Assembly (NCBI RefSeq): GCF_903064525.1
Contig: NZ_LR797830.1
Location: forward strand, 744,001-808,000
Length of the DNA stretch: 64,000 nucleotides
Direction: 5' to 3'
DNA from: Methylacidimicrobium sp. AP8
Lineage (GTDB): Bacteria > Verrucomicrobiota > Verrucomicrobiia > Methylacidiphilales > Methylacidiphilaceae
Positions 2,449-59,023 of the stretch are shown here, piece after piece. The notes beneath the pieces were generated by a model, which did not search any database, was not told where the DNA came from, and saw only the letters and a program-made list of their open reading frames with translations. Positions within the stretch are counted from its first letter, which is position 1, and the number at the start of each line of letters is the position of its first letter. A program made the translations under genes and the position numbers.

Positions 2449-2517
2449 ACGGCGGTCCCCCTCCTCCGCCCCGGCAACGGGAGCGGCGCATATCCGGCGA
2501 AGGTCAACGAAGTCAAC

Positions 2518-2693: not shown

Positions 2694-2694
2694 G

Positions 2695-43664: not shown

Positions 43665-43709
43665 ACCTTTCGGCTGGCATCGCTTCGAAGGCGCGGCATC
43701 TTGGAGACA

Positions 43710-44705
43710 ATGAAGAGTCGATATCAACCTGGGGGAGCCAAGCCGGCTTTCGTCGTGCTTCTCGCCTGGAGCCTGACCGCCTTTCTTGGCTGGTCGAGTC
43801 CGGCTCCGCCGGTCCGGCCGCTGCGGGTGGTCACCACAATCGCCCCGCTCTACTGCTTTGTGCAGAACATCGCCGGCGAGGCGGTGGAGCTGTCCAACCT
43901 GCTGCCGCCTAATGTCGAGCCCCACGACTATGTGCTGAGCCCGGGGGACATGCGGCGTCTTCTCGACGCCGACGTCGTCATACGAAACGGGCTCGGTCTG
44001 GAGAGCTTCTTGGAAGCGGCGCTGTCCAAGGTGGAGCGGTCGAAGGTGATCGACGCCGCTGCGGGGATCCTTCCGCTGCCCGAGTGGGTGCCCCCGGGCG
44101 CATCCGCCGGTTGGGAGCGGCCCGGAGGAGCTCCCGCCAATCCCCACGTCTGGCTCGACCCGCGGCGCGCGCAGACCGAGGTGGAAACGATCGCGCAGGA
44201 GCTCTGCCGCCGCAACCCGCCGAAGGCTTCCGAGTATCAAGCGGGCGCCGAAAGGCTGCTGGCGGCGCTGCGGCGGATCGACGACCGATACCGGCGCTCG
44301 CTGGAGCCTCTGCCCGGAAAGAAGATGGTGTGCGATCACCAGGCGTTCGCCTACCTCGCGGACCGCTACGGAATCGAGGTGATCGCCTTCCTCGACGCGC
44401 GCGGGCACGCGGGCCTTTCTCCCAAGCTTCTTGCGTGGACCATGGCGGCGATCGTCCGTGAACGGGTGCCCGCTCTTTTCAGCGAAGTCAACCGGGTCAG
44501 CCCGGAGCTTCGGAGCCTTTCGCGGGACACGGGGATCCCGATCGTCCCCCTCGATTCGATGGAAAGCGGCGCCTTGCGCGCCGATCTCTACGAGCGCGCG
44601 GCGGAGAGCAACCGGTTGAGCCTGGTGCGTGCTTTCCAAGCGGGGTCCCGCCCGCTGCCGCAGGAGGATCATGGAAAGGGATCGGGGAACCGAGCGGGAG
44701 GCTGA
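43710..44705 (+). CDS. znuA: Zinc/manganese ABC transporter substrate-binding protein
   Basis: The 331-residue periplasmic cluster A-I binding protein starts with a signal peptide (AFVVLLAWSLTAFLGWSS). Metal ligands typical of ZnuA/TroA are visible: His in VEPHDYVLSP, His in NPHVWLDP, His in VCDHQAFAYLADRYG and an acidic residue near SEVNRVSPE. The His-rich loop of true ZnuA is missing, so Zn or Mn is possible. ATG 43710 is preferred to the TTG at 43701. It overlaps the ATPase gene by 35 bases and heads a three-gene operon. Confidence 0.9.
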   Translation: MKSRYQPGGAKPAFVVLLAWSLTAFLGWSSPAPPVRPLRVVTTIAPLYCFVQNIAGEAVELSNLLPPNVEPHDYVLSPGDMRRLLDADVVIRNGLGLESFLEAALSKVERSKVIDAAAGILPLPEWVPPGASAGWERPGGAPANPHVWLDPRRAQTEVETIAQELCRRNPPKASEYQAGAERLLAALRRIDDRYRRSLEPLPGKKMVCDHQAFAYLADRYGIEVIAFLDARGHAGLSPKLLAWTMAAIVRERVPALFSEVNRVSPELRSLSRDTGIPIVPLDSMESGALRADLYERAAESNRLSLVRAFQAGSRPLPQEDHGKGSGNRAGG

Positions 44706-45441
44706 CCGAACCGGGGCGCCGAGGCGGCATTCCGCGGGCCGGCCGCTCCTGCTGCGGACGCGCGGCCTGTCCGCCGGATACGGAGACGAGGCCGCTTTCG
44801 AAGGGGTTTCTCTCGAGGTGTTCGGCCGGGAGATCGTGTCGCTTATCGGGCCCAACGGGGCGGGGAAGACCGCTTTGCTGCGTTGCCTGGCCGGCATCCT
44901 GCCCCCGCGCGCAGGGAGCTTGGAAAAGGCCCCCGGCCTCCGCCTCGGCTATCTGCCGCAGAAGCTGGCGTTCGACCGGCTCCTACCGATTACCGTCGGT
45001 GAATTCTTCTCGCTGCGGCTCGGCCGCCCGCTCTTCGGTTCCGGCGGCTGGGGAGGGGAGCGGATCGAAGGTCTGGACGAACTGGGAGTCTTTGGCCTGC
45101 TCGGCCGACGCCTCGGGGAACTTTCCGGAGGAGAGCTGCAACGGGTGCTGGTGGCGGCGGCGCTGGCCAAGAGGCCGCAGCTCCTTCTTCTGGATGAGCC
45201 GGCGACCGGAGTCGACCTGTTGGGGGCGGCGGCGTTCGATGCGCTGCTGCACCGGCTTCGGGATCGCGACGGGCTGGGCATCCTGCTGGTTTCCCATGAT
45301 CTGCAACTGGTTCACCACATTGCGGATTGGGTCTATTTTCTCAATCGGAGGATCCTCGCGGAGGGCCCGCCGCAGGAAGTCTTGCGCGCGGAGCGGCTGG
45401 CGGACGCCTACCGGCGCTTCCCCCACCCCGGTTGGGGCTGA
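44671..45441 (+). CDS. znuC: Zinc/manganese ABC transporter ATPase
   Basis: The 256-residue ABC ATPase has Walker A GPNGAGKT, Q-loop YLPQKLAF, signature LSGGELQRV, Walker B LLLLDEPATG and the H-loop VSHD. It powers import through the adjacent permease. The start at ATG 44671 is fixed by AGGAGG directly upstream, within the end of znuA; this overlap suggests translational coupling. The N-terminal 25 residues before LLLRTRGLSAGYG are an Arg-rich extension. Confidence 0.93.
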   Translation: MERDRGTEREADRTGAPRRHSAGRPLLLRTRGLSAGYGDEAAFEGVSLEVFGREIVSLIGPNGAGKTALLRCLAGILPPRAGSLEKAPGLRLGYLPQKLAFDRLLPITVGEFFSLRLGRPLFGSGGWGGERIEGLDELGVFGLLGRRLGELSGGELQRVLVAAALAKRPQLLLLDEPATGVDLLGAAAFDALLHRLRDRDGLGILLVSHDLQLVHHIADWVYFLNRRILAEGPPQEVLRAERLADAYRRFPHPGWG

Positions 45442-45465
45442 CCGAAGAAGAAGAAAAGGAAGCGG

Positions 45466-46329
45466 ATGGGGCCGCTTGATTTTCTCTCCTATGATTTCCT
45501 GCGCCGGTCGCTGGCCGCGGCCGCGCTGGCCGGACCGGTCTGCGGTTTCCTGGGCGTCTTCTTGACGGCCCGCGGGATGGCCTTTTTCAGCGACGCGCTG
45601 GCTCACATGGCGATCATCGGTGTCGCCTTTGGGCTGCTCGGCGCGGGCGCGGCCGAGCTCTGGCTCGGGCTCAAGCTGCCCCTCGGCCTCTCCTCCGGGC
45701 TCCTAGTCCTCTGGTGCCTGGCTGCGGCTTGGATGATGAATGCGCTTTTTGAAAGCGCGCGCTGGCGTCCCGACACCGTGATGGCGTTCTGCTTCACGGG
45801 GAGCGTGGCTTTCGGGGTGCTGGTCCTGGGGAAGCTCGGCCGCTACGGCTTTCTCGAGCAGACCCTCTTCGGCGACATCAATGCGAACTCGTGGAGCGAC
45901 GTGGCGGTGCTCGGCGCGGTGGCCGGCAGCGGGGCGTGGATCATTCGGAGGCGGCTGCGGGAGCTTCTCCTGATTCTTGTGGACGAGGATCTCGCCGCGG
46001 CCGACGGAATCCCGGTCCGCCGGCTCAACCGGACCTTGGTCTTCTTGGTCGCCGCGGTGGTCGCCGTCGCCCTCAAGCTGCTGGGAGCGCTCCTGGTAAG
46101 CGCGCTGCTCGTCGTGCCGGCGGCGGCGGCCCGGCTGGTCGCCCCCAATCTCCGGCTCCTGCTCTTGCTCGCGACGGCCGTCGGGTTCCTCGGATCGGTG
46201 GGCGGAGTCATCCTCTCCTTCTATCTCGATCTGGCTACGGGACCCACGATCGTGCTGACCCACCTGGTCTTCCTGCTCGCCGCCATGGGAGCGCAGCCCC
46301 TCTTCCGGGGCCGGCGTCCCGCCGGCTAG
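45466..46329 (+). CDS. znuB: Zinc/manganese ABC transporter permease
   Basis: The 287-residue integral membrane protein has about eight hydrophobic helices and the ABC-3 family pattern: GVFLTARGMAFFSDALAHMA after helix 1 and KLLGALLVSALLVVPAAAARL in the ATPase-coupling region. It completes the ZnuABC/TroABC-type importer. It begins 24 bases after the ATPase gene with AAAAGGAA upstream. An IS1182 end lies directly after the stop. Confidence 0.92.
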   Translation: MGPLDFLSYDFLRRSLAAAALAGPVCGFLGVFLTARGMAFFSDALAHMAIIGVAFGLLGAGAAELWLGLKLPLGLSSGLLVLWCLAAAWMMNALFESARWRPDTVMAFCFTGSVAFGVLVLGKLGRYGFLEQTLFGDINANSWSDVAVLGAVAGSGAWIIRRRLRELLLILVDEDLAAADGIPVRRLNRTLVFLVAAVVAVALKLLGALLVSALLVVPAAAARLVAPNLRLLLLLATAVGFLGSVGGVILSFYLDLATGPTIVLTHLVFLLAAMGAQPLFRGRRPAG

Positions 46330-46330
46330 C

Positions 46331-46971
46331 AGCCTGTCGGACTTTCCTTTTCCTTCTGGAATATGGTAAAAGCGGGCATGGCTGAACGATTTGTGACGGT
46401 GGATCGGATGACGCCGATGCTTTTGCCCGAGGACCTGCGGGATTGGGTGGAGGAGAACGACTTGGTGCATTTTGTCATCGAGGCGGTGGAGAGGATGGAT
46501 CTGCGGGGCTTTCGGGTGAACGTACGCGGGACTGGGGACGCACAGTATCCGCCGTCGATGATGCTCTCGCTTTTGATTTATTGCTACGCCAACGGAATCT
46601 TTTCGAGTCGGAGGATTGAGGCGGCGACGCGGCGGGACGTGGCGGTGCGTTATCTTTGTGCGAAGACCCATCCGGATCACGACACGATGTGCCGGTTTCG
46701 GCGGGAGAACTTTGCTGCGGTGGCGGACTGCTTTTTGAAGGTCTTGGAGTTGGCCCGGGAGATGAAGCTTTTGAAGGTCGGGGTGGTGAGTGTCGACGGG
46801 ACCAAGATTCGGGCCAACGCGAGCAAGCATCGGAATGTGACCTACGAGCGGGCCGGAGAACTGGTGGAGCTTTTGCGGGCGGATGTGGCAGATCTCTTGA
46901 AGAAGGCGGAGGAAGCGGACCGGAGAGAGGAAGCGGATCGGGGCAAGCTACCTGAGGAGATTGGTCTGATC
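46331..46971 (+). mobile_element. IS1182-family remnant (left part)
   Basis: It starts CAGCCTGTCGGACTTT, a usual IS1182-type end, directly after znuB and is cut at about 46971 by the IS3 element. No matching right end is present in the window. Confidence 0.75.
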
Positions 46972-47022
46972 TTTCTTCGAAAACGTGGACGGGGCTTCGG
47001 AGGGTTTAGTTGTTTAGGTTAG
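46378..47022 (+). pseudogene. IS1182-family transposase, 3'-truncated
   Basis: The N-terminal 195 or so residues are typical: MAERFVTVDRMTPMLLPEDL, GDAQYPPSMMLSLLIYCYANGI, CAKTHPDHDTMCRFRREN and VVSVDGTKIRANASKH with the first catalytic Asp. After KLPEEI the frame enters the IS3-family element and ends by chance at 47022. The rest of the DDE domain is missing. Confidence 0.88.
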
Positions 47023-47863
47023 CGAGATTATTTTCGAAGTCCAGCGGGGATTGGTAATGGAGGCCGCTATGAAGGCGGCGGCGGTTGTAGAAGCATTCGA
47101 TGTAATCGAAGATCATGATCTTGGCCTCTTGTTTTGTTTTCGGGAGGAAGGAGCCGAAGCACTCGGTTTTGAGCGTGGCCCAGAAGGATTCCATTATGGC
47201 ATTGTCATAACACTGTCCCTTGCGGCTCATGGAGGCGACGGCACCGCAGGAGTGCAGTAGCGCGTTGAACTCTCCGCTGGCATACTGGACGCCGCGATCG
47301 GAATGGTGCAAGAGCCCTGGGTCGGGGCGCCGGCTTTTCCAGGCCTTCTTCCAGGCTCTTGTCACCAAAGAGGTAGAGAGCGAGTCCTCGGCATGCCAGC
47401 CGACAGACCGGCGGGAACCACCATCGAGGATGGCGGAAAGAGAAAGCCAGCCCTCGGCGGTGAGGATGGAGGTGATGTCACCGATCCAGATCTGGTTGGG
47501 GCGATCCGGCGCGGGCATCCGGGCCAGCCAGTTGTCGGCGACCGGAAGGCGATGGGCGCTATCGGTGGTTTGGGGGCGGAAGCGGCGTTTTTGTTTCGCG
47601 CGCAGACCGAGCTCCCGCATTAAGCGGGCCACCCGATTTTTGCCGCAAGGCTCTCCGGCCTTACGCAGTGCCCAGGTGATGCGCGGGCTGCCATAGGTTC
47701 TCCGGCTTTCCAGGAAAACTGAATGGATGGCCGCAAGCAGTTGCTTGTCCCGTTGCCGACGGCTTCCCCGGTCCTTGTGCCGGTGAGCATGGAAGCCGCT
47801 CCGGGAAACCTCCAGAGCTTCGGCCAATTCGGTGAGGCAATAATCTTTGGTCATTTTTTGCAT
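47006..47863 (-). CDS. IS3-family transposase OrfB (DDE)
   Basis: The 285-residue catalytic protein has an HTH-like start (LTELAEALEVSRSGFHAH) and a complete rve domain: IGDITSILTAEGWL with the first Asp, HHSDRGVQYAS with the second Asp and NAIMESFWATLKTE with the Glu. The start ATG 47863 overlaps the OrfA stop as TGATG, which suggests coupled translation. The frame is open further 5' but that part shadows OrfA. The element looks competent. Confidence 0.93.
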   Translation of the reverse strand: MQKMTKDYCLTELAEALEVSRSGFHAHRHKDRGSRRQRDKQLLAAIHSVFLESRRTYGSPRITWALRKAGEPCGKNRVARLMRELGLRAKQKRRFRPQTTDSAHRLPVADNWLARMPAPDRPNQIWIGDITSILTAEGWLSLSAILDGGSRRSVGWHAEDSLSTSLVTRAWKKAWKSRRPDPGLLHHSDRGVQYASGEFNALLHSCGAVASMSRKGQCYDNAIMESFWATLKTECFGSFLPKTKQEAKIMIFDYIECFYNRRRLHSGLHYQSPLDFENNLANLNN

Positions 47864-48126
47864 CACCGCATATCGCTGGCAGGCATCTCGGCCGACAAGA
47901 TGCCCAATGCTTTTTGTAAAATGTCGCGCTGAGGGCGCAGATAGTCGTTTCCCTGGCGCAACCTCCGCAGCTCGCGCTGCTCGGGCGATTCGGCCGCCAA
48001 CGTCTTGGGATCGCTGAAAGCCCGACCGCCTTGGGCTTCCTTGACCCACAGATTCAGCGACCAATGGGAAACGCCCAGATCGCGAGCTACCTCGTGAATC
48101 GAACGCCCCCCTCGCACCAGGGCCAC
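47863..48126 (-). CDS. IS3-family transposase OrfA (HTH)
   Basis: The visible 87 residues form the HTH_Tnp_1 domain (SIHEVARDLGVSHWSLNLWVKE) followed by a leucine-zipper-like tail (ELRRLRQGNDYLRPQRDILQKALGIL). The coding frame continues upstream to about 48199 (GKSSSKFARRYDRECKENA), which is normal OrfA sequence, but without an ATG; GTG 48126 is the first recognised start. The true start is probably a rare codon near 48190 after AAAGGAAA. Confidence 0.85.
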   Translation of the reverse strand: MALVRGGRSIHEVARDLGVSHWSLNLWVKEAQGGRAFSDPKTLAAESPEQRELRRLRQGNDYLRPQRDILQKALGILSAEMPASDMR

Positions 48127-48251
48127 CGCATTCTCTTTACACTCGCGGTCATAACGCCGCGCGAACTTGCTGCTGCTCTTTCCGTTGTTTATTTGGAGTT
48201 TTCCTTTCTAACCCCCAAAGCCCCTGTCCGCAAAATCGAAGAAACTTCAGG

Positions 48252-48868
48252 GTGAAGAGCTCGTAATCTTCTTTTAGTTCCCTGGCATTCTCCTCGTCGT
48301 ATTGGCTTTCGGGCAGCTGTCGGGCACGAATCGCTTGCGCGTTCTGTAAATCCTGAAGCTCATAGGTGGCCTCCCGCTGCTCCGGAGTCAGATGCGCGAG
48401 CCACCAGGCGTCCCATGCGGTTTCCTCGGTATCGAGAATCTGCTCCCCTTCTTCCCCAGTGAGGTGGAGAAGTCCTTCCGGTGCAGGGGTTCCCCTGAGC
48501 CTCAAGAGCGCATCGAGGATCGGAATGGGAAGGGTGGCGAGCTTTCGCTCCAGCTTGCGGATCTCTGTGCGGACAACGAATTTCCCCTCTTCGGTATGCC
48601 TATCGGTGTGCGGAGTCGACCAGCGGTAGGCCTGAGCCATCGCCCACCGTCCTTCGGGAGTCTGAAGGGTTTCGGCAAAGAGCTGCGGGTCGACCGTCTG
48701 CAAAAAAGAGAAGGTTGCGGGCATCCGCAAGGTGGTGAGCTTTTGGATCAAGGCTTGGGCCTCGGGAGAGAGGGGAGCGGATGGTTTGTCCTCTGCAACG
48801 GCCACGGCGGCAGTCAACCAGAGGGAAAGAAGTACGCCTCGGGCGCATTCGAGCAGGAGTCGGGTCAT
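48252..48868 (-). pseudogene. Tandem exported protein, copy 1, 3'-truncated
   Basis: This last unit of the array begins at ATG 48868 (MTRLLLECARGVLLSLWLTA) and keeps about 205 codons, up to LKEDYELFT. Just left of that the sequence changes into the IS3-family element, and the frame reads on into it until 48149. The C-terminal third is lost. It carries the GTPAPEGLLHLTGEEGEQIL version of the middle block. Confidence 0.88.
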
Positions 48869-48917
48869 CGTCTTGGGCTCCTCCCACGCCAAGGGCAACG
48901 TCGCTGCCTCACCCCTT

Positions 48918-49925
48918 TCAATCACCCGAATGTCCGGAGAAGCCCGCCGCAGCGTAGATCTGCTTGGTAAGCGTGTAGACGGCATCGTGCATTTTCTGAT
49001 CATGCAGGGCCCGGGCAAGGTCGTTGAGTGCATAGAGCACCTCACTTTGTGGGGAAAAGGCGATAGCGATCGGCCGGACCGGAGGAAAAATGGCGATGGC
49101 GGGCTCGAGATTGGGTCCTTTGGCAAATTGGGCGATCTCTTCCCAAAACCAGCTGGGCATCGCGGAAAGCTTCCAAGCAGGTTTATCCGCTAAAGGTGCA
49201 CCACCTTCTGCGAACCAAATGTCTCGTAAAACCCCGAGGAACTCCTTTGCCGACCACCAGTTCTCGAGGACCTGATGGAGCTTTTCCGGCCCCCAGCGGG
49301 TGAAGAGCTCGTAATCTTCTTTTAGTTCCCTGGCATTCTCCTCGTCGTATTGGCTTTCGGGCAGCTGTCGGGCACGAATCGCTTGCGCGTTCTGTAAATC
49401 CTGAAGCTCATAGGTGGCCTCCCGCTGCTCCGGAGTCAGATGCGCGAGCCACCAGGCGTCCCATGCGGCTTCCTCGGTATCGAGAATCTGCTCCTGTTCT
49501 TCGTCAGGGAGATCCAAAAATTGCGGGGGGACATCCTTTTGGCTTTGTCCTCGAAGCCTCAAGAGCGCATCGAGGATCGGAATGGGAAGGGTGGCGAGCT
49601 TTCGCTCCAGCTTGCGGATCTCTGTGCGGACAACGAATTTCCCCTCTTCGGTATGCCTATCGGTGTGCGGAGTCGACCAGCGGTAGGCCTGATCCATCGC
49701 CCACCGTCCTTCGGGAGTCTGAAGGGTTTCGGCAAAGAGCTGCGGGTCGACCGTCTGCAAAAAAGAAAAGGTTGCGGGCATCCGCAAGGTGGTGAGCTTT
49801 TGGATCAAGGCTTGGGCCTCGGGAGAGAGGGGAGCGGATGGTTTGTCCTCTGCAACGGCCACGGCGGCAGTCAACCAGAGGGAAAGAAGTACGCCTCGGG
49901 CGCATTCGAGCAGGAGTCGGGTCAT
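48918..49925 (-). CDS. Tandem exported protein, copy 2
   Basis: The 335-residue product has a signal peptide (LLECARGVLLSLWLTAAVAVA, cleavage probably before EDKPSAPLS). I recognise no family. The mature part is rich in Trp, Glu and Gln, mainly helical, with the segments AYRWSTPHTDRHTEEGKF, WDAWWLAHLTPEQREATYEL and NWWSAKEFLGVLR. Middle block: QSQKDVPPQFLDLPDEEQEQ. Unique here: DIWFAEGGAPLADKPAWKL and AIAFSPQSEVLYALND, so this is the most divergent full copy in the C-terminal half. The start ATG 49925 has GGAGGAG upstream. Confidence 0.88.
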   Translation of the reverse strand: MTRLLLECARGVLLSLWLTAAVAVAEDKPSAPLSPEAQALIQKLTTLRMPATFSFLQTVDPQLFAETLQTPEGRWAMDQAYRWSTPHTDRHTEEGKFVVRTEIRKLERKLATLPIPILDALLRLRGQSQKDVPPQFLDLPDEEQEQILDTEEAAWDAWWLAHLTPEQREATYELQDLQNAQAIRARQLPESQYDEENARELKEDYELFTRWGPEKLHQVLENWWSAKEFLGVLRDIWFAEGGAPLADKPAWKLSAMPSWFWEEIAQFAKGPNLEPAIAIFPPVRPIAIAFSPQSEVLYALNDLARALHDQKMHDAVYTLTKQIYAAAGFSGHSGD

Positions 49926-49975
49926 CGTCTTGGGCTCCTCCCACGCCAAGGGCAACGTCGCTGCGGAACCCCCTT

Positions 49976-50982
49976 TCAATCACCCGAATGTCCGGAGAAG
50001 CCCGCCGCAGCGCAGATCTGCTTGGTAAGCGTGTAGACGGCATCGTGCATTTTCTGATCATGCAAGGCCCGGGCAAGGTCGTTGAGTGCACAGAGCACCA
50101 GACTTTGTGGGGAACCGGCGATAGCGATCGGCCGGACCGGAGGAAAAAGGGCGATGGCGCGCTCGAGATTGGGTCCTTTGGCAAATTGGGCGATCTCTTC
50201 CCAAAACCAGCTGGGCATCGCGGAAAGCTTCCAGGGAAGTTTTCCGGAAATCGGCAAAAGTTCACCACCTTCCCCCTCCCAAACGTATCGCAAAACCCCG
50301 AGGAACTCCTTTGCCGACCACCAGTTCTCGAGGACCTGATGGAGCTTTTCCGGACCCCAGCGGGTGAAGAGCTCGTAATCTTCTTTTAGTTCCCTGGCAT
50401 TCTCCTCGTCGTATTGGCTTTCGGGCAGCTGTCGGGCACGAATCGCTTGCGCGTTCTGTAAATCCTGAAGCTCATAGGTGGCCTCCCGCTGCTCCGGAGT
50501 CAGATGCGCGAGCCACCAGGCGTCCCATGCGGTTTCCTCGGTATCGAGAATCTGCTCCCCTTCTTCCCCAGTGAGGTGGAGAAGTCCTTCCGGTGCAGGG
50601 GTTCCCCTGAGCCTCAAGAGCGCATCGAGGATCGGAATGGGAAGGGTGGCGAGCTTTCGCTCCAGCTTGCGGATCTCTGTGCGGACAACGAATTTCCCCT
50701 CTTCGGTATGCCTATCGGTGTGCGGAGTCGACCAGCGGTAGGCCTGAGAGCCATCGCCCACTGTCCTTCGGGAGTCTGAAGGGTTTCGGCAAAGAGCTGC
50801 GGGTCGACCGTCTGCAAAAAAGAAAAGGTTGCAGGCATCCGCAAGGTGGTGAGCTTTTGGATCAAGGCTTGGGCCTCGGGAGAGAGTGGAGCGGATGGTT
50901 TGTCCTCTGCAACGGCCACGGCGGCAGTCAACCAGAGGGAAAGAAGTACGCCTCGGGCGCATTCGAGCAGGAGTCGGGTCAT
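49976..50982 (-). pseudogene. Tandem exported protein, copy 3, frameshifted
   Basis: The signal peptide and first 80 residues (to ETLQTPEGQWAMA) read from ATG 50982. An extra AG near 50746 (CTGAGAGCC where other copies have CTGAGCC) then shifts the frame, and the remaining 255 codons, from QAYRWSTPHTDRHTEEGKF, lie in another frame. Without this dinucleotide insertion the gene would be complete. It carries the GTPAPEG middle block and the GELLPISGKLPWKL late block. Confidence 0.88.
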
Positions 50983-51031
50983 CGTCTTGGGCTCCTCCCA
51001 CGCCAAGGGCAACATCGCTGCCTCACCCCTT

Positions 51032-52039
51032 TCAATCACCCGAATGTCCGGAGAAGCCCGCCGCAGCGTAGATCTGCTTGGTAAGCGTGTAGACGGCATC
51101 GTGCATTTTCTGATCATGCAGGGCCCGGGCAAGGTCGTTGAGTGCACAGAGCACCTGACTTTGTGGGGAAAGGGTGATAGCGATCGGCCGGACCGGAGGA
51201 AAAAGGGCGATGGCGCGCTCGAGATTGGGTCCTTTGGCAAATTGGGCGATCTCTTCCCAAAACCAGCTGGGCATCGCGGAAAGCTTCCAAGCAGGTTTAT
51301 CCGCTATAGGTACACCACCTTCTTGCTCCCAAACGTATTGCAAAACCCCGAGGAACTCCTTTGCCGACCACCAGTTCTCGAGGACCTGATGGAGCTTTTC
51401 CGGCCCCCAGCGGGTGAAGAGCTCGTAATCTTCTTTTAGTTCCCTGGCATTCTCCTCGTCGTATTGGCTTTCGGGCAGCTGGTTGGCACGAATCGCTTGC
51501 GCGTACTGTAAATCCTGAAGCTCATAGGTGGCCTCCCGCTGCTCCGGAGTCAGATGCGCGAGCCACCAGGCGTCCCATGCGGCTTCCTCGGTATCGAGAA
51601 TCTGCTCCCGCTCTTCCTCAGGGAGATCCGAAAATTGCGGGGGGACATCCTTTTCGCTTTGTCCTCGAAGCCTCAAGAGCGCATCGAGGATCGGAATGGG
51701 AAGGGTGGCGAGCTTTCGCTCCAGCTTGCGGATCTCTGTGCGGACAACGAATTTCCCCTCTTCGGTATGCCTATCGGTGTGCGGAGTCGACCAGCGGTAG
51801 GCCTGATCCATCGCCCACCGTCCTTCGGGAGTCTGAAGGGTTTCGGCAAAGAGCTGCGGGTCGACCGTCTGCAAAAAAGAAAAGGTTGCGGGCATCCGCA
51901 AGGTGGTGAGCTTTTGGATCAAGGCTTGGGCCTCGGGAGAGAGGGGAGCGGATGGTTTGTCCTCTGCAACGGCCACGGCGGCAGTCAACCAGAGGGAAAG
52001 AAGTACGCCTCGGGCGCATTCGAGCAGGAGTCGGGTCAT
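51032..52039 (-). CDS. Tandem exported protein, copy 4
   Basis: The 335-residue product has the same signal peptide as copy 2. Middle block: QSEKDVPPQFSDLPEEEREQ. Late blocks: EQEGGVPIADKPAWKL and AITLSPQSQVLCALND. It also has AIRANQLPESQ where most copies have AIRARQLPESQ; copy 7 shares this. The open frame extends to 52297 through the end of copy 5, but ATG 52039 is set by the signal peptide and the GGAGGAG site. Confidence 0.88.
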   Translation of the reverse strand: MTRLLLECARGVLLSLWLTAAVAVAEDKPSAPLSPEAQALIQKLTTLRMPATFSFLQTVDPQLFAETLQTPEGRWAMDQAYRWSTPHTDRHTEEGKFVVRTEIRKLERKLATLPIPILDALLRLRGQSEKDVPPQFSDLPEEEREQILDTEEAAWDAWWLAHLTPEQREATYELQDLQYAQAIRANQLPESQYDEENARELKEDYELFTRWGPEKLHQVLENWWSAKEFLGVLQYVWEQEGGVPIADKPAWKLSAMPSWFWEEIAQFAKGPNLERAIALFPPVRPIAITLSPQSQVLCALNDLARALHDQKMHDAVYTLTKQIYAAAGFSGHSGD

Positions 52040-52088
52040 CGTCTTGGGCTCCTCCCACGCCAAGGGCAACGTCGCTGCCTCACCCCTT

Positions 52089-53087
52089 TCAATCACCCGA
52101 ATGTCCGGAGAAGCCCGCCGCAGCGTAGATCTGCTTGGTAAGCGTGTAGACGGCATCGTGCATTTTCTGATCATGCAGGGCCCGGGCAAGGTCGTTGAGT
52201 GCACAGAGCACCTGACTTTGTGGGGAAAGGGTGATAGCGATCGGCCGGACCGGAGGAAAAAGGGCGATGGCGCGCTCGAGATTGGGTCCTTTGGCAAATT
52301 GGGCGATCTCTTCCCAAAACCAGCTGGGCATCGCGGAAAGCTTCCAAGCAGGTTTATCCGCTATAGGTACACCACCTTCCCCCTCCCAAACGTATTGCAA
52401 AACCCCGAGGAACTCCTTTGCCGACCACCAGTTCTCGAGGACCTGATGGAGCTTTTCCGGACCCCAGCGGGTGAAGAGCTCGTAATATTCTTTTAGTTCC
52501 CTGGCATTCTCCTCGTCGTATTGGCTTTCGGGCAGCTGTCGGGCACGAATCGCTTGCGCGTACTGTAAATCCTGAAGCTCATAGGTGGCCTCCCGCTGCT
52601 CCGGAGTCAGATGCGCGAGCCACCAGGCGTCCCAGACGGCTTCCTCGGTATCGAGAATCTGCTCCCCTTCTTCCCCAGTGAGGTGGAGAAGTCCTTCCGG
52701 TGCAGGGGTTCCCCTGAGCCTCAAGAGCGCATCGAGGATCGGAATGGGAAGGGTGGCGAGCTTTCGCTCCAGCTTGCGGATCTCTGTGCGGACAACGAAT
52801 TTCCCCTCTTCGGTATGCCTATCGGTGTGCGGAGTCGACCAGCGGTAGGCCTGAGCCATCGCCCACTGTCCTTCGGGAGTCTGAAGGGTTTCGGCAAAGA
52901 GCTGCGGGTCGACCGTCTGCAAAAAAGAAAAGGTTGCGGGCATCCGCAAGGTGGTGAGCTTTTGGATCAAGGCTTGGGCCTCGGGAGAGAGGGGAGCGGA
53001 TGGTTTGTCCTCTGCAACGGCCACGGCGGCAGTCAACCAGAGGGAAAGAAATCCGCCTCGGGCGCATTCGAGCAGGAGTCGGGTCAT
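52089..53087 (-). CDS. Tandem exported protein, copy 5
   Basis: The 332-residue product has the shorter GTPAPEGLLHLTGEEGEQ middle block, as in copies 1 and 3, which explains its length. The signal peptide reads CARGGFLSLWLTAAVAVA, with Gly-Phe instead of Val-Leu, resembling copy 7. Late blocks are of the copy 4 type (GGVPIADKPAWKL, AITLSPQSQVL). Thus one gene combines pieces otherwise found in different copies, as expected from gene conversion. Confidence 0.88.
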   Translation of the reverse strand: MTRLLLECARGGFLSLWLTAAVAVAEDKPSAPLSPEAQALIQKLTTLRMPATFSFLQTVDPQLFAETLQTPEGQWAMAQAYRWSTPHTDRHTEEGKFVVRTEIRKLERKLATLPIPILDALLRLRGTPAPEGLLHLTGEEGEQILDTEEAVWDAWWLAHLTPEQREATYELQDLQYAQAIRARQLPESQYDEENARELKEYYELFTRWGPEKLHQVLENWWSAKEFLGVLQYVWEGEGGVPIADKPAWKLSAMPSWFWEEIAQFAKGPNLERAIALFPPVRPIAITLSPQSQVLCALNDLARALHDQKMHDAVYTLTKQIYAAAGFSGHSGD

Positions 53088-53137
53088 CGTCTTGGGCTCC
53101 TCCCACGCCAAGGGCAACGTCGCTGCGGAACCCCCTT

Positions 53138-54151
53138 TCAATCACCCGAATGTCCGGAGAAGCCCGCCGCAGCGTAGATCTGCTTGGTAAGCGTGTAGAC
53201 GGCATCGTGCATTTTCTGATCATGCAAGGCCCGGGCAAGGTCGTTGAGTGCACAGAGCACCAGACTTTGTGGGGAACCGACGATAGCGATCGGCCGGACC
53301 GGAGGAAAAATGGCGATGGCGGGCTCGAGATTGGGTCCTTTGGCAAATTGGGCGATCTCTTCCCAAAACCAGCTGGGCATCGCGGAAAGCTTCCAGGGAA
53401 GTTTTCCGGAAATCGGCAAAAGTTCACCACCTTCCCCCTCCCAAACGTATCGCAAAACCCCGAGGAACTCCTTTGCCGACCACCAGTTCTCGAGGACCTG
53501 ATGGAGCTTTTCCGGCCCCCAGCGGGTGAAGAGCTCGTAATCTTCTTTTAGTTCCCTGGCATTCTCCTCGTCGTATTGGCTTTCGGGCAGCTGTCGGGCA
53601 CGAATCGCTTGCGCGTACTGTAAATCCTGAAGCTCATAGGTGGCCTCCCGCTGCTCCGGAGTCAGATGCGCGAGCCACCAGGCGTCCCATGCGGCTTCCT
53701 CGGTATCGAGAATCTGCTCCTGTTCTTCGTCAGGGAGATCCGAAAATTGCGGGGGGACATCCTTTTCGCTTTGTCCTCGAAGCCTCAAGAGCGCATCGAG
53801 GATCGGAATGGGAAGGGTGGCGAGCTTTCGCTCCAGCTTGCGGATCTCTGTGCGGACAACGAATTTCCCCTCTTCGGTATGCCTATCGGTGTGCGGAGTC
53901 GACCAGCGGTAGGCCTGAGCCATCGCCCACTGTCCTTCGGGAGTCTGAAGGGTTTCGGCAAAGAGCTGCGGGTCGACCGTCTGCAAAAAAGAAAAGGTTG
54001 CGGGCATCCGCAAGGTGGTGAGCTTTTGGATCAAGGCTTGGGCCTCGGGAGAGAGGGGAGCGGATGGTTTGTCCTCTGCAACGGCCACGGCGGCAGTCAA
54101 CCAGAGGGAAAGAAGTACGCCTCGGGCGCATTCGAGCAGGAGTGGGGTCAT
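53138..54151 (-). CDS. Tandem exported protein, copy 6
   Basis: This is the longest copy (337 residues). It has the QSEKDVPPQFSDLPDEEQEQ middle block together with the longer GELLPISGKLPWKL late block, and AIVGSPQSLVLCALND. The start is ATG 54151, in a TGGGGTCATCG context differing by one base from the other copies. Flanking 50-base spacers match the rest of the array except for small changes. Confidence 0.88.
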   Translation of the reverse strand: MTPLLLECARGVLLSLWLTAAVAVAEDKPSAPLSPEAQALIQKLTTLRMPATFSFLQTVDPQLFAETLQTPEGQWAMAQAYRWSTPHTDRHTEEGKFVVRTEIRKLERKLATLPIPILDALLRLRGQSEKDVPPQFSDLPDEEQEQILDTEEAAWDAWWLAHLTPEQREATYELQDLQYAQAIRARQLPESQYDEENARELKEDYELFTRWGPEKLHQVLENWWSAKEFLGVLRYVWEGEGGELLPISGKLPWKLSAMPSWFWEEIAQFAKGPNLEPAIAIFPPVRPIAIVGSPQSLVLCALNDLARALHDQKMHDAVYTLTKQIYAAAGFSGHSGD

Positions 54152-54201
54152 CGTCTTGGGCTCCTCCCACGCCAAGGGCAACGTCGCTGTGCAATCCCCT
54201 T

Positions 54202-55209
54202 TCAATCACCCGAATGTCCGGAGAAGCCCGCCGCAGCGTAGATCTGCTTGGTAAGCGTGTAGACGGCATCGTGCATTTTCTGATCATGCAGGGCCCGGGC
54301 AAGGTCGTTGAGTGCACAGAGCACCTGACTTTGTGGGGAAAGGGTGATAGCGATCGGCCGGACCGGAGGAAAAAGGGCGATGGCGCGCTCGAGATTGGGT
54401 CCTTTGGCAAATTGGGCGATCTCTTCCCAAAACCAGCTGGGCACCGCGGAAAGCTTCCAAGCAGGTTTATCCGCTATAGGTACACCACCTTCTTGCTCCC
54501 AAACGTATTGCAAAACCCCGAGGAACTCCTTTGCCGACCACCAGTTCTCGAGGACCTGATGGAGCTTTTCCGGCCCCCAGCGGGTGAAGAGCTCGTAATC
54601 TTCTTTTAGTTCCCTGGCATTCTCCTCGTCGTATTGGCTTTCGGGCAGCTGGTTGGCACGAATCGCTTGCGCGTACTGTAAATCCTGAAGCTCATAGGTG
54701 GCCTCCCGCTGCTCCGGAGTCAGATGCGCGAGCCACCAGGCGTCCCATGCGGCTTCCTCGGTATCGAGAATCTGCTCCTGTTCTTCGTCAGGGAGATCCG
54801 AAAATTGCGGGGGGACATCCTTTTCGCTTTGTCCTCGAAGCCTCAAGAGCGCATCGAGGATCGGAATGGGAAGGGTGGCGAGCTTTCGCTCCAGCTTGCG
54901 GATCTCTGTGCGGACAACGAATTTCCCCTCTTCGGTATGCCTATCGGTGTGCGGAGTCGACCAGCGGTAGGCCTGAGCCATCGCCCACCGTCCTTCGGGA
55001 GTCTGAAGGGTTTCGGCAAAGAGCTGCGGGTCGACCGTCTGCAAAAAAGAGAAGGTTGCGGGCATCCGGAGGGCGGTAAGCCTTTCGATCAAGGCTTGGG
55101 CCTCGGGAGAGAGGGGAGCGGATGGTTTGTCCTCTGCAACGGCCACGGCGGCAGTCAACCAGAGGGAAAGAAATCCGCCAAGCCATTGGTGACGGAAAAT
55201 GGTCTTCAT
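54202..55209 (-). CDS. Tandem exported protein, copy 7 (promoter-proximal)
   Basis: The 335-residue product is first in transcription order. Its N-terminus is unlike the others (MKTIFRHQWLGGFLSLWLTA in place of MTRLLLECARG) but joins the same signal core and the cleavage site before EDKPSAPLS. It has small private changes (ALIERLTALRMPATF). A strong ribosome site, AGGAGGACAAGGAGAAG, precedes ATG 55209. It is probably the founder, with the others arising by duplication of its body. It lies 20 bases after the ChaN/EreA-like gene and is likely co-transcribed with it. No family recognised. Confidence 0.88.
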   Translation of the reverse strand: MKTIFRHQWLGGFLSLWLTAAVAVAEDKPSAPLSPEAQALIERLTALRMPATFSFLQTVDPQLFAETLQTPEGRWAMAQAYRWSTPHTDRHTEEGKFVVRTEIRKLERKLATLPIPILDALLRLRGQSEKDVPPQFSDLPDEEQEQILDTEEAAWDAWWLAHLTPEQREATYELQDLQYAQAIRANQLPESQYDEENARELKEDYELFTRWGPEKLHQVLENWWSAKEFLGVLQYVWEQEGGVPIADKPAWKLSAVPSWFWEEIAQFAKGPNLERAIALFPPVRPIAITLSPQSQVLCALNDLARALHDQKMHDAVYTLTKQIYAAAGFSGHSGD

Positions 55210-55229
55210 GGTATCTTCTCCTTGTCCTC

Positions 55230-56378
55230 CTATGGACCTTGCGGCACCGAGCTTGCCCTGCGATTGACCGCCTCGGAAAGAGAGTGGTCGATCGGTTTTC
55301 CCGACAAGGGGTCGTAGGGCGTGCGACCCGGATCGAGCGCAATGTTCGCAGCTGCTTGCCGGTTGAGTTGGGACACAATTGCCTGCACCCGCCGAGGAGT
55401 CAAATACCCTGGTTGCGCCGGTGGCGAAAAATATCCCAAGCCCAGTTCGGCCAAAAAGCCTTGGGGGGTGATGGCACTCTGTACAATGGCAACCGAAGGG
55501 ATGTGATAGATGTTCTCCAATAGGTAGTTGAGGCCGGGATAGATCTCGTTCGGCTTGCTCGTTGTCGCAATCCGCTCATTGGGGAGGAATCCCATGTGGG
55601 AGACTCCCCCAATGACAATGGTTCGGGCGTTCGGCTTGGTGACCTGGGCCGCAAACGCGGCAATGCTCAGGTTTCGCTTCTTCATTCCCCATGGGGAGTT
55701 CAAAAACCTCCACGATTCAGCGGCTGTGACTGGCCGGCTGGGGGAGTTCACGATTAGGTTCCCGTTCTGGTCCAGTCCGGTATTCCGGTCGAGGTCGCCT
55801 CCGATTACCTTGTATCCTGTCTTGTAGAAGTGGCGCCAGAGGCGAAACATTTGCATGCGTGCTCGGAGACCATCGATGGCCTCTGGAGCCACGCCGTTCG
55901 CCATCGCGAACGCTTGCGCCGCGCTGCGGGTCAGTGAGTCAACCTTTTGTAGAAATGCCGCATACGTCTTTACGACAAAGCTGCGGCGTTGTGCATTCGG
56001 ATCGTCCGGCGAGTACCCAGAGTCAAGCTCGGCCATGTTCTGGTAGCTCGGATCTTTCAGAAACCGGTCGAGCTGCTTCTGCTTGGCGGCGGGATACTCG
56101 AGGATCACGTTTCGGAATCCGTGGGTATAGGCTGAGTCGGCGAACCTTTCTTCGGCCTGCATCTGCTCGGGATTGAAATGAAATTCTCCAAGGCCGACGC
56201 ACTGGATGCCCGCCTTGTCGAGGGCGGCCCAATTGCTCTTGTCGGCCTGGGTGATCGGGTTTTGCCCGGGAGGCAAGGGGGAGATCGGCGCGCCGGCGGG
56301 GGCCGCGGTTTGTCCCGGGCCTGACGAAGAGCTTTGGAGAGCGGTTGCCGCGGCGGCGGCCGCCGCCGCTGTGCCCAT
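55230..56378 (-). CDS. ChaN/EreA-like exported protein (TIKI/TraB superfamily)
   Basis: The 382-residue frame shows the pattern of the erythromycin-esterase/ChaN/TIKI fold: CVGLGEFHFNPEQMQAEERF with Glu-x-His, RNVILEYP, KVIGGDLDRN and TIVIGGVSHMGFLP. Such proteins bind metal or haem, or hydrolyse esters or peptides; the reaction here is unknown. The N-terminal part is Ala/Pro-rich. A good signal peptide (MRAKAFCRSGLLLRATVLLA) starts at 56650 in another frame and is joined by no open frame, so a frameshift near 56500 probably separates it from this domain. It leads directly into the tandem array. Confidence 0.72.
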   Translation of the reverse strand: MGTAAAAAAAATALQSSSSGPGQTAAPAGAPISPLPPGQNPITQADKSNWAALDKAGIQCVGLGEFHFNPEQMQAEERFADSAYTHGFRNVILEYPAAKQKQLDRFLKDPSYQNMAELDSGYSPDDPNAQRRSFVVKTYAAFLQKVDSLTRSAAQAFAMANGVAPEAIDGLRARMQMFRLWRHFYKTGYKVIGGDLDRNTGLDQNGNLIVNSPSRPVTAAESWRFLNSPWGMKKRNLSIAAFAAQVTKPNARTIVIGGVSHMGFLPNERIATTSKPNEIYPGLNYLLENIYHIPSVAIVQSAITPQGFLAELGLGYFSPPAQPGYLTPRRVQAIVSQLNRQAAANIALDPGRTPYDPLSGKPIDHSLSEAVNRRASSVPQGP

Positions 56379-56499
56379 CTGGGTGCCTATCGCCGCTCCT
56401 TCCGCAGCCGTGCTCTCGGCCGTCTGGGCCGCCGCCTGCGGCGCGGCCTGGTCGGTTCCCTCGGGATTGGCGGGAGAAGGAGCGCAGGGGTCGCCGCAG

Positions 56500-56650
56500 G
56501 GGAGCGGTCAGAGCGGCGGGGCCTCCCCATTGGGGCGGCTTCCGGAGGGGCGACGCAAACCTGCCCATAGCTCCTCAAGCCCCCCGCGAAGGCCAAAAGG
56601 ACGGTCGCCCGCAGCAGGAGGCCAGAACGGCAAAAGGCCTTTGCTCTCAT
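56500..56650 (-). pseudogene. Signal-peptide part of the ChaN/EreA-like gene, out of frame
   Basis: ATG 56650 starts MRAKAFCRSGLLLRATVLLAF, a clear secretion signal, then GQVCVAPPEAAP. The sequence after about 56515 makes better sense in the frame of the downstream domain (LPCGDPCAPSPANPEG). One indel would join the two into a single protein of about 470 residues. Confidence 0.5.
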
Positions 56651-56690
56651 GGCCGGGTTGCTCCCTGGGAGGCTTGGGTTCGGAAGGATT

Positions 56691-57173
56691 TTACCGGGGT
56701 CGGGGGCTCTTGCCTTTCAATTGCTCGATTTGCGCCCTTTGGCAGAGGAAGGCATCGATCCACCGGTTACGTTCCCGGGCGAGCTCCCGGTAGTAGGCTA
56801 CAAAGCAGGACTCGGCGTCCTGCGGCTCGAGCGCTCGGACGGGGGCGAGGATCCGCCCGGCCCAGTCGGTCTGGGCAGCATAACCCGGCGAGGCGACGGT
56901 CCAGCGCAAAAGGGCGGAAGCGGTTTCCGGCGCGAGCATCGGCCTCGGAGAGGAGAAGAGCTCCGGCTCGGTGGCCCGAAGCCACTCTTGGGCTCGGGCG
57001 GCGATCGCCGGCCGCGGGGCGCCGGGAACTCCCCAGGTGGCGTAGTAACGGAAGCGGAGCTCATTCCAGTTTTGGTCAAAGCTCGCCTCCAAGGGCCGCA
57101 GGCAGCGGTTTGCCCGCGAGGCGCAGGGCCAAGCCGTCGCCCTCGCGAAGGGCCAGGATCTCTGCGGCGACAA
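56691..57173 (-). CDS. Unknown protein, possibly C-terminal part of the upstream gene
   Basis: The frame encodes up to 160 residues. The convincing part starts near the TTG at 57092 (LEASFDQNWNELRFRYYATW) and continues EWLRATEPELFSSPRPM and CFVAYYRELARERNRWIDAF. It overlaps the end of the gene at 57076 in another frame. Either it is a separate small gene with a late start, or one indel near 57100 splits a single protein of about 430 residues. I recognise no domain. Confidence 0.55.
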   Translation of the reverse strand: MSPQRSWPFARATAWPCASRANRCLRPLEASFDQNWNELRFRYYATWGVPGAPRPAIAARAQEWLRATEPELFSSPRPMLAPETASALLRWTVASPGYAAQTDWAGRILAPVRALEPQDAESCFVAYYRELARERNRWIDAFLCQRAQIEQLKGKSPRPR

Positions 57174-57972
57174 AGCCGCAGTTCCATTCGAGAAGGGAGG
57201 GGGCGGCCAGGAGAATCTTCCATTGGCCGTCGACGACCCGGGCCCGCTCGACCCGCCAGCGAAAGACGAAGGGGTCGCCCGCCCTCAGCAGCCGGTGCTT
57301 GTGCTGCACATCGTGGTGGCAGCCCGGCGGGAGGTAGGCATCGAAGAGGAGATCCGACCAGATGCGGGCGACCGGCTCGGGCATTTCTTTGGGGAGGGGG
57401 AGCCGGAGCGCCGGCACCACATAGAGGTCGATCCGGGAGCGGACGACCGCCCGGTAGTCGATCGCCACTCCCCCGGGGAGACGCTCGTAGCCGATGGGCT
57501 CAAGGGAGTCGATCGTCACCGGCCGCATGAGGTGGCGTTGCAAGCAGGCGCGCGCGGCGGAAACGGGCGGGAGCTCCCTGCGCTCGACCTCGGGATCGAG
57601 CCGCCGGGCTTCCCGAAGCCCCGGGTCTCCTTCCCGGAGCCAGTGGAGGAGCTCTCTGCGCCAGCGGGCATAGTCGGCGCGCAGCCGAGCCAAGGAGTGG
57701 GGCTCGTCATCGGCCAAGGAAGCGGGAACGGCGACCGCTTGGGGAGGGGTTGCCGGCCGCTTCCGCTCCTTCGCCCGAGGATGGAGCGCCAGCAGGGCGG
57801 CGGCCAGCAGGGAAAGGGTGACCAGGAGGGCGGCGCCGGTGGGCTTCCGCGGCCCGCCTAGGCCGCTCGGCGGCCGGACGGGCCGGGAGTCGCCTTCCCC
57901 TTGTTGTGGCTGAAAATAGGACCTCTCGGAACACTCCGTCTCTTCCCGCTCCGGAAAAACGACCGCGCGCAT
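57076..57972 (-). CDS. Unknown membrane-anchored protein
   Basis: The 298-residue product has a cytoplasmic N-terminus of about 47 residues, one membrane helix (AALLVTLSLLAAALLALHP) and an extracytoplasmic domain with alternating helices and strands (GVAIDYRAVVRSRIDLYVVPALRLPL; FVFRWRVERARVVDGQWKILLA). It is not recognised. It starts a minus-strand series that runs through the ChaN/EreA-like gene into the tandem array. The 271 bases to its right, up to the palindromic element, hold no gene and are the likely promoter region of this series. Confidence 0.7.
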   Translation of the reverse strand: MRAVVFPEREETECSERSYFQPQQGEGDSRPVRPPSGLGGPRKPTGAALLVTLSLLAAALLALHPRAKERKRPATPPQAVAVPASLADDEPHSLARLRADYARWRRELLHWLREGDPGLREARRLDPEVERRELPPVSAARACLQRHLMRPVTIDSLEPIGYERLPGGVAIDYRAVVRSRIDLYVVPALRLPLPKEMPEPVARIWSDLLFDAYLPPGCHHDVQHKHRLLRAGDPFVFRWRVERARVVDGQWKILLAAPSLLEWNCGFVAAEILALREGDGLALRLAGKPLPAALGGEL

Positions 57973-58243
57973 GGCTCCTTCCTCCCTTGCGATCCATCTT
58001 TCCCGCGGCCCGCGGGACGTGCCGGTGCCCGCCGAAGCCGAGGTTTCGGGCTCCTTACCGGGAAGGAAACTAGCAGGGTCGCCGGGAGAAGGGGCAAGCG
58101 GTTTTTCGGTTACATTTTGGTGACGATTTCTTCAGATTTTCCGTTAAGGAAAGGCCGCTCTTCCCGGAGGCCGTGAACCCTGGCCGGGACAGGCGGGGCC
58201 GCGGCCGGCGCCGGGCGCGGGTTCGGTCGCGTTAAGGGCTAGC

Positions 58244-58419
58244 GGCCATTTCTCACAAATTTCGTAGCCCAGGCGCTACAAATGGGCTTGGGTGCGAGGC
58301 GGGCGCAGGTTTTCCACCGGAGCTGTATGAAGACATACTGCGAGGATGGAAAACCAAGCGGGAGCCAAGCAGACGAGCCCGTTTTGCAAGCCGTAGGAGA
58401 AAGCTTGTGAGAAATGGCC
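58244..58419. repeat. 176-bp palindromic MITE/REP-like element, copy 2
   Basis: It is the same element as at 2518-2693. Here the outer inverted repeat extends to 20 bases, CTAGCGGCCATTTCTCACAA, counting flanks. It again begins 1 base beyond a stop codon, that of the superoxide dismutase gene. Confidence 0.8.
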
Positions 58420-58420
58420 G

Positions 58421-59023
58421 CTAGACCAGGGGAAGAAATCGGGCCACCGACTCCCAGTCGATCTGGGCGAGCACCGAGTCGAGGTAGGCGGCGCGATCCC
58501 AACCGAAATCCAGGATAAAGGCATGGTCTTCCATATCGATGGCGAGAAGCGGAGCGGCTCCCCAAAAAGGGACCGTAACGCTCCCGTCGCCGAGCAGGTT
58601 GAGGAGCCGGCCGCTTGCTTGGTCAAGACAGGTCCAGGCCCAGGATTCGGAAGCCAATGCCGTCGTCCGGAGATCGCGCAAGAAGCTGTCGAAGGAGCCG
58701 AAGTCGCGGTCGATCCATTCGCGGAGCGTCCCTTGCGGAGCGCCGCCGGCCCCGCCGAGGATGCTGAAATAGAGCTCGTGGCTCTTCGCCGCCGAGAGGC
58801 AATAGGAGAGGTCGAGCTTCCGAGCCCGAAAGAGCGAACCGTCGATCTGGTTCTCCTTCGGAGAGTCGCCCTTTTCGAGCGCCGACAAGAGTTCCTTCGC
58901 CCTGCGGACTTGGATGGCGTACAGGCCGAGGTGCATCTGCAGGGTCTTCTCCGAGATGCCGCCGGTCTTGCCAAAAAGCTTCTGCCGGAATCGCTCGGTG
59001 CAGTCGCTGATGATGGATGCCAT
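58421..59023 (-). CDS. sodB: Fe/Mn-type superoxide dismutase
   Basis: The 200-residue protein is of usual SOD length. It dismutates superoxide in the cytoplasm. Metal ligands can be placed: His in KTLQMHLGLYAIQV, His in AAKSHELYFSILGG, and Asp and His in IDMEDHAFILDFGWDRAAYL. GGAGGAPQGTLREWIDRDFGS matches the family. Several usual residues differ (MEDHAF instead of WEHAY, SHELYF instead of NH-x-x-x-W), so it is a divergent member. ATG 59023 (MASIISDC) is preferred; the frame is open to 59164. Confidence 0.85.
   Translation of the reverse strand: MASIISDCTERFRQKLFGKTGGISEKTLQMHLGLYAIQVRRAKELLSALEKGDSPKENQIDGSLFRARKLDLSYCLSAAKSHELYFSILGGAGGAPQGTLREWIDRDFGSFDSFLRDLRTTALASESWAWTCLDQASGRLLNLLGDGSVTVPFWGAAPLLAIDMEDHAFILDFGWDRAAYLDSVLAQIDWESVARFLPLV

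What the first reader, a model, noticed from the sequence alone, without database searches (positions are those of the whole stretch)
48252..55209. Seven tandem copies of an unrecognised exported protein
Six full and one cut copy of a gene of about 1 kb lie head to tail on the minus strand with a constant step of about 1.05 kb and near-identical spacers. Each product has a signal peptide with cleavage expected before EDKPSAPLS and a Trp/Glu-rich mature domain that I cannot place in any family. Local amplification of a secreted protein points to dosage or diversity selection, for example against phage, rivals or metal stress. The array starts right after a ChaN/EreA-like exported protein. Tandem count and sequence are seen; the selection idea is inference.
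Basis: partly seen in the sequence, partly recalled or inferred. Interest (0 to 1): 0.72.

Follow-up and report, generated by a model that had tools for sequence, protein, structure and literature searches.

The report
Diversified secreted-protein array beside a hydrolase
A methane-eating acid-loving bacterium carries two tandem arrays of a secreted helical protein that no database knows, always next to a secreted enzyme-like protein of the TIKI/EreA/ChaN fold, and both genes swap and diversify pieces the way known toxin-and-antidote genes do, although toxicity itself has not been tested.

Summary
The array is real: seven head-to-tail copies on the minus strand, step 1048-1064 bp; five intact, one frameshifted, one cut by an IS3-family insertion. 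The genome matches Methylacidimicrobium thermophilum AP8 in size, GC and topology. A second array (about five copies, itself broken by an IS) lies partly in a 97%-identical segmental duplicate elsewhere. The array protein ("Arr", mature 310 aa, acidic, all-helical by AlphaFold, pLDDT 88) has no Pfam, NCBIfam, PDB, phage or plasmid relative. It occurs in all seven genus genomes examined, in none of 53 other relatives and none of 387 other sampled phylum genomes. In every locus whose upstream side is assembled, an exported TIKI/EreA/ChaN-fold protein with the invariant 2His/2Glu pattern lies directly upstream. In strain B4, two upstream genes share a 100%-identical 5' region, then fall to mostly 53-80% over the ChaN domain; 3' ends of displaced upstream genes lie stranded beside arr copies. 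Arr copies are mosaics with clustered amino-acid changes. I read it as a co-diversifying secreted hydrolase plus a multiplied binding partner, most likely inhibitor or immunity-like (about 0.4). Toxicity, binding and delivery are untested. Exact copy number and several frameshifts may suffer from Nanopore assembly of repeats.

The parts
54202..55209 (-). arr copy 1, intact, 335 aa; signal peptide MKTIFRHQWLGGFLSLWLTAAVAVA, mature EDKPS...
53138..54151 (-). arr copy 2, intact, start ATGACCCC
52089..53087 (-). arr copy 3, intact; the junction ARG|GFLSLW looks like the original hybrid signal peptide
51032..52039 (-). arr copy 4, intact
49976..50982 (-). arr copy 5, +2 frameshift near codon 78 (real decay or unpolished long-read error)
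48918..49925 (-). arr copy 6, intact
48251..48868 (-). arr copy 7, truncated at about residue 206 by an insertion sequence
55230..56650 (-). ChaN/EreA-like (TIKI superfamily) exported protein; domain intact from 56378, signal-peptide part in another frame because of 1-2-nt homopolymer differences at 56502-56598
56691..57972 (-). gene A, unknown protein with a membrane/signal segment, split by a homopolymer indel; only next to some loci, so not part of the core pair
58243..58420 (.). 178-bp MITE-like repeat (16-bp inverted ends, CTAG flanks) at the boundary of the duplicated segment
46961..48250 (-). IS3-family insertion sequence that truncates copy 7 (its OrfB at 47006-48064); the left end is approximate
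52720..58427 (-). segment duplicated at G000:C1 about 75.4-81.1 kb (L029 9379-15112), 96.9% identical

Best explanation
The array is the multiplied half of a conserved two-gene secreted module. SHOWN by sequence: an exported TIKI/EreA/ChaN-fold protein that keeps the superfamily's 2His/2Glu active-site pattern, followed by one to seven copies of an exported, acidic, all-helical protein (Arr). The copies are mosaics made by recombination and carry clustered replacement changes. The upstream gene can keep a constant 5' end and swap its 3' (ChaN) domain, and displaced 3' ends are stranded beside arr copies. INFERRED: Arr binds the ChaN-like enzyme, or enzymes of related strains, in the periplasm and restrains it, so that an array of slightly different Arr proteins widens protection, as immunity-gene arrays do behind toxin genes. 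The array grows by unequal crossing-over between 1.05-kb units and by displacement of old enzyme genes by new ones; selection keeps the Arr copies and lets the extra enzyme copies decay.
For: Upstream ChaN-fold gene next to arr in every locus whose upstream side is assembled, including the 22-25%-identical divergent pair. AlphaFold model of the partner: VIA Z 13.7 to EreC, 13.2 to ChaN, 12.3 HopBA1, 10.8 RRSP, 10.4 PMT, against 8.3 for the next unrelated chain. Invariant G51-E52-x-H54, E81 and H248, comparable with the 2His/2Glu catalytic residues shared by TIKI enzymes (PMC6254334). In B4, the L030 and L031 partner genes are 100% identical over about 125 codons and then mostly 53-80% over the ChaN domain. 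Four stranded 3' fragments of a type-II partner gene, 87-93% identical to type II and 71-76% to type I, the arrangement described for Vibrio immunity arrays (PMC5361080). Mosaic Arr copies; clustered replacements. The two AP8 ChaN-like genes differ in 26 nonsynonymous against 6 synonymous codons, mostly in residues 106-130 and 206-221, while the flanking 2 kb of the duplicate is nearly free of substitutions. All 23 Arr proteins acidic; partner domain basic (pI 8.6-9.4) in AP8, 4AC, STB_62 and the divergent pair. Arr is under purifying selection between species (dN/dS about 0.4).
Against: No toxicity, binding or immunity was tested. No toxin or immunity family is hit. T6SS (VipA) and contractile-sheath families are not found in the genome, so no delivery route is identified; one marginal ShlB-type hit exists. 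TIKI-fold proteins also include an antibiotic esterase and a haem carrier. The charge contrast fails in B4 and LP2A (partner pI 5.6-7.3). Array copies within AP8 are 93-98% identical to copy 1, closer than typical orphan immunity genes. The partner/Arr divergence correlation (r 0.91) is expected from shared ancestry alone.
Confidence: 0.4

Rival explanations
1. Secreted hydrolase with dedicated partners, not a weapon: the ChaN-like protein is a periplasmic or surface hydrolase or haem/metal-binding protein, and Arr proteins are its chaperones, adaptors or substrate-specificity subunits; several variants give several specificities.
For: Fixed gene order and close spacing; solenoid-like Arr model fits a binding scaffold; EreC, BcR135 and ChaN are the top VIA matches of the partner; purifying selection on Arr.
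Against: Does not readily explain the domain-swap pattern of the partner with stranded 3' ends, nor why Arr outnumbers the partner and varies in patches.
Confidence: 0.3
2. Selfish or neutral amplification: a recombination-prone locus in an IS/MITE-rich region expands and contracts by unequal crossing-over; copies are largely redundant and decaying.
For: Frameshifted and IS-broken copies; MITE at the duplication boundary; copy number varies freely; within-AP8 dN/dS scatters around 1.
Against: The family persists in all seven genus genomes; dN/dS about 0.4 between species and 0.25-0.53 among B4/LP2A copies; clustered replacements; invariant active-site residues in the partner.
Confidence: 0.15
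3. Dosage amplification of one abundant exported protein for acid, heat or metal stress.
For: Many near-identical copies each with a ribosome site; acidophilic genus (PMC9543262).
Against: Copies differ at 48 residues in clusters; family absent from the sister genera in the sample, which are also acidophilic if they are the named ones; partner also varies.
Confidence: 0.08
4. Assembly artefact inflating copy number.
For: Genome matches AP8, assembled from Nanopore reads with N50 7.5 kb; single-base homopolymer indels between the two duplicates in regions with almost no substitutions.
Against: Copies carry distinct mosaic variants; two different arrays; the B4-like closed genome, the LP2A assembly and a metagenome contig independently show arr duplicates.
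Confidence: 0.04

Closest known systems
TIKI superfamily proteins (EreC/BcR135 erythromycin-esterase family, ChaN, HopBA1, RRSP, PMT)
   Same: The ChaN-like partner has this fold (VIA Z 10-14) and invariant residues matching 2His/2Glu.
   Different: Sequence similarity is near the detection limit (PF04187 best E 0.0026 in 4 of 10 members); it has an exported Pro/Ala/Ser-rich leader, in most members with a Cys-Pro-Pro-Leu-Pro motif, and a fixed, often multi-copy helical neighbour.
T6SS immunity-gene arrays of Vibrio cholerae (PMC5361080)
   Same: Upstream gene with constant 5' and variable 3' part, arrays of the small downstream gene, stranded 3' ends of displaced upstream genes, mosaic recombination.
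   Different: No T6SS sheath gene found in this genome; both partners carry Sec-type signal peptides; toxicity unproven; copies within AP8 are near-identical rather than of different types.
Alpha-solenoid (HEAT/importin-like) and 14-3-3-like helical proteins
   Same: Arr model resembles them loosely over residues 138-310 (VIA Z 6.5 or less).
   Different: No significant Foldseek match; generic helical packing only.

Membership tests
TIKI/EreA/ChaN superfamily (partner protein) | core fold of parallel beta-sheet surrounded by helices | tested here: met
   AlphaFold pLDDT 86; EreC, ChaN, BcR135, HopBA1, RRSP and PMT all stand above unrelated chains
TIKI/EreA/ChaN superfamily (partner protein) | 2His/2Glu active-site residues | tested here: met
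   G51-E52-x-H54, E81, H248 invariant in the aligned rows; pattern as in PMC6254334; matched by motif and spacing, not by superposed coordinates
Pfam PF04187 ChaN haem-binding | profile match at curated cut-off | tested here: inconclusive
   4 of 10 members, best E 0.0026; window copy not matched
Pfam PF04187 ChaN haem-binding | haem binding | not testable with these tools
   needs protein
Effector-immunity module | upstream gene with constant 5' region and variable 3' domain | tested here: met
   B4 L030 vs L031, 100% then mostly 53-80%
Effector-immunity module | specific partner gene directly downstream, often in arrays with stranded 3' ends of displaced effector genes | tested here: met
Effector-immunity module | toxicity neutralised by the downstream protein | not testable with these tools
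   bench assay needed
Effector-immunity module | identified delivery system | tested here: inconclusive
   VipA and phage-sheath families not found; one marginal ShlB hit; other routes not tested
Known sequence family for Arr | match to Pfam, NCBIfam, PADLOC or PDB sequence | tested here: not met
Known fold for Arr | close solved structure | tested here: inconclusive
   best Foldseek E 0.08, VIA Z 6.5 or less

The most novel reading that the evidence does not exclude
A polymorphic TIKI/ChaN-fold secreted effector with a genus-specific family of exported helical immunity proteins amplified in tandem arrays: a previously undescribed antagonism system in verrucomicrobial methanotrophs, working without a type VI apparatus.
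Probability: 0.35. Interest if true: 0.75.

Novelty: new variant of a known kind. Interest (0 to 1): 0.56.

Why it matters
If right, it would add a new enzyme-fold use and a new inhibitor family to bacterial competition, in acid-living methanotrophs for which I found no described antagonism system (a limited literature search), and would show an immunity-style array evolving outside a type VI cluster. Even if wrong, it defines a genus-specific two-gene family that is strongly amplified in small (2.3 Mb) genomes, and it flags repeat-linked frameshifts in the assembly.

Tried and rejected
Sequence families for Arr (Pfam, NCBIfam, PADLOC, PDB by phmmer and by profile): nothing. Structure libraries for Arr: only generic helical matches in PDB, none significant in the viral set. 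Phages, plasmids and viral contigs: none. Genome-contig scan with one protein: none; with the alignment: only Methylacidimicrobium tartarophylax, strain LP2A and MAG STB_62. A loop bias of the variable residues was tested and not found (14 of 86 non-helix against 34 of 224 helix, p 0.86). ChaN-like hits in an order-level relative (G024) were inspected: short proteins without an Arr neighbour. Profile search of PDB sequences with the ChaN-like alignment gave only chance matches, so its placement rests on fold and motif. Gene A was considered as a third member and dropped because it is not next to the loci of B4 or LP2A.
Full report
OBSERVATION. The window is bases 744001-808000 of a one-contig 2,300,970-bp genome of about 64% GC with two pmoA-type genes. 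These figures match Methylacidimicrobium thermophilum AP8 (2.3 Mb, 64.3% GC, one circular chromosome; PMC7907005 and PMC9543262); a sister genome (G005, 2,371,269 bp) matches strain B4. The identification is by these features, not by a record name. The seven tandem units are real: spacing 1048-1064 bp, mostly 93-100% identical. Five are intact; copy 5 has a +2 frameshift; copy 7 stops at 48250 at the end of an IS3-family element. Copies 2-7 begin MT(R/P)LLLECARG fused onto the signal-peptide core of copy 1. After the last copy of the second array, the same spacer, this alternative start and the bases GGCGGATTTCTTTCCC are found before unrelated DNA, which is what tandem duplication with a junction inside the signal peptide would leave.

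A SECOND ARRAY. The same genome holds another array at about 72-78 kb with three intact copies and one more copy split in two by a 1.8-kb insertion sequence with a 540-aa transposase; the search reports these as five matches. Window 52720-58427 and L029 9379-15112 are 96.9% identical. One boundary coincides with a 178-bp MITE-like repeat with 16-bp inverted ends; recombination between such repeats is a plausible but unproven cause of the duplication.

WHO HAS IT. Arr was found in all six other genomes of the genus and in none of the 53 other relatives in the search, including six genomes of two other genera of the same family (7 of 60 genomes counting the window's own), nor, with a profile, in any of 387 other genomes drawn from the phylum. 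Match numbers differ: 13 in AP8 (about eleven gene copies, some split or cut), 10 in the B4-like genome, one to three elsewhere. Some draft contigs end inside arr (L040, L041), as repeats make them do. Named records confirm M. tartarophylax, strain LP2A and a metagenome bin.

THE CONSTANT PARTNER. Directly upstream of the first arr of each locus lies an exported ChaN-like gene; this holds for every locus with an assembled upstream side, also for the divergent pair in M. tartarophylax and G003 (22-25% identity in Arr). Pfam sees the partner barely (PF04187 in 4 of 10 members, best E 0.0026), but its model (pLDDT 86) matches EreC, ChaN, BcR135, HopBA1, RRSP and PMT with Z 10-14, above the first unrelated chain at 8.3. 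The residues G51-E52-x-H54, E81 and H248 are invariant. RRSP's 2His/2Glu residues (E3900, H3902, E3930, H4030) are essential and shared with other TIKI enzymes (PMC6254334); the E-x-H motif and the +29/+30 spacing to the next Glu agree. The same fold serves an antibiotic esterase, a haem binder and toxins (PMC7979712), so the fold alone does not give the function.

ARR. The mature protein is 310 aa, acidic (all 23 copies pI 4.8-5.7), with sixteen helices. There is no sequence or convincing structural relative. Generic matches are alpha-solenoids and 14-3-3 proteins, which suggests a binding scaffold but proves nothing.

DIVERSIFICATION. Eight AP8 copies vary at 48 residues and at 12 further positions only synonymously; the variable residues are clustered (60% of gaps two or less, against a permutation mean of 29% and maximum of 49%), chiefly in mature residues 101-118, 208-226 and 251-274. 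Pairwise dN/dS ranges from 0.4 to 5 within AP8 but is about 0.4 against M. tartarophylax. Because gene conversion homogenises the rest, I read this as block replacement by recombination rather than as a clean test of positive selection. In B4 and LP2A the best-matching copy changes along each gene. The two AP8 ChaN-like genes differ by 26 nonsynonymous and 6 synonymous codons, mostly in two patches, while the neighbouring 2 kb is almost free of substitutions: the patches were probably imported.

DOMAIN SWAP AND STRANDED 3' ENDS. In B4 the partner genes of L030 and L031 are identical over about 125 codons and then fall to mostly 53-80% across the ChaN domain. Four stretches in B4 and LP2A hold only the 3' part of a type-II partner gene, next to arr copies, and are 87-93% identical to type II. 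This is the layout that Kirchberger et al. explain for Vibrio immunity arrays by displacement of effector genes with retention of the downstream gene (PMC5361080). It is the main reason why I prefer an inhibitor or immunity-like role. It is a resemblance in evolution and layout, not a functional test.

LIMITS. No type VI sheath or contractile-sheath gene was found, one marginal ShlB-type hit; a delivery route is unknown, and both partners carry Sec-type signal peptides by eye. Frameshifts in the ChaN-like gene and gene A are single- or double-base homopolymer differences between two otherwise almost identical duplicates. The AP8 genome was assembled from Nanopore reads and polished; short reads cannot be placed uniquely in repeats (general knowledge), so these frameshifts and the exact copy number need checking.

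VERDICT. Real, unusual and not in the databases searched. Conserved secreted pair: strongly supported. Diversification by recombination: strongly supported. Inhibitor or immunity role of Arr: about 0.4.

Noticed in passing
window 2517-2694 and 58243-58420; L029 14928-15105: A 178-bp MITE-like repeat with 16-bp inverted ends (CGGCCATTTCTCACAA) and 4-bp flanking repeats, 97.8-99.4% identical copies.
   Followed up: partly
window 46363-48250: A truncated DUF772-type transposase abuts an IS3-family element; their junction with arr copy 7 suggests a deletion or nested insertion.
   Followed up: partly
window 56502-57818: Six single- or double-base homopolymer differences against the duplicate break reading frames in gene A and the ChaN-like gene although substitutions are nearly absent: probable unpolished assembly errors in repeats.
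   Followed up: yes
L029 7561-9381: A 1.8-kb insertion sequence with a 540-aa transposase splits one arr copy in the second array; a 99.5% identical piece lies in L066.
   Followed up: partly
L037 667-3194 and L039 3-1621: A divergent single-copy version of the ChaN-like/Arr pair, 22-25% identical in Arr, in M. tartarophylax (G006) and G003.
   Followed up: partly
window 43701-46329: A zinc-type ABC uptake gene set (binding protein, ATPase, permease, judged from sequence only) lies next to the insertion sequences left of the array.
   Followed up: no
G024 C3 119-123 kb (L068 5502-8519): Three short ChaN-like proteins clustered in an order-level relative, without an Arr-like neighbour.
   Followed up: partly
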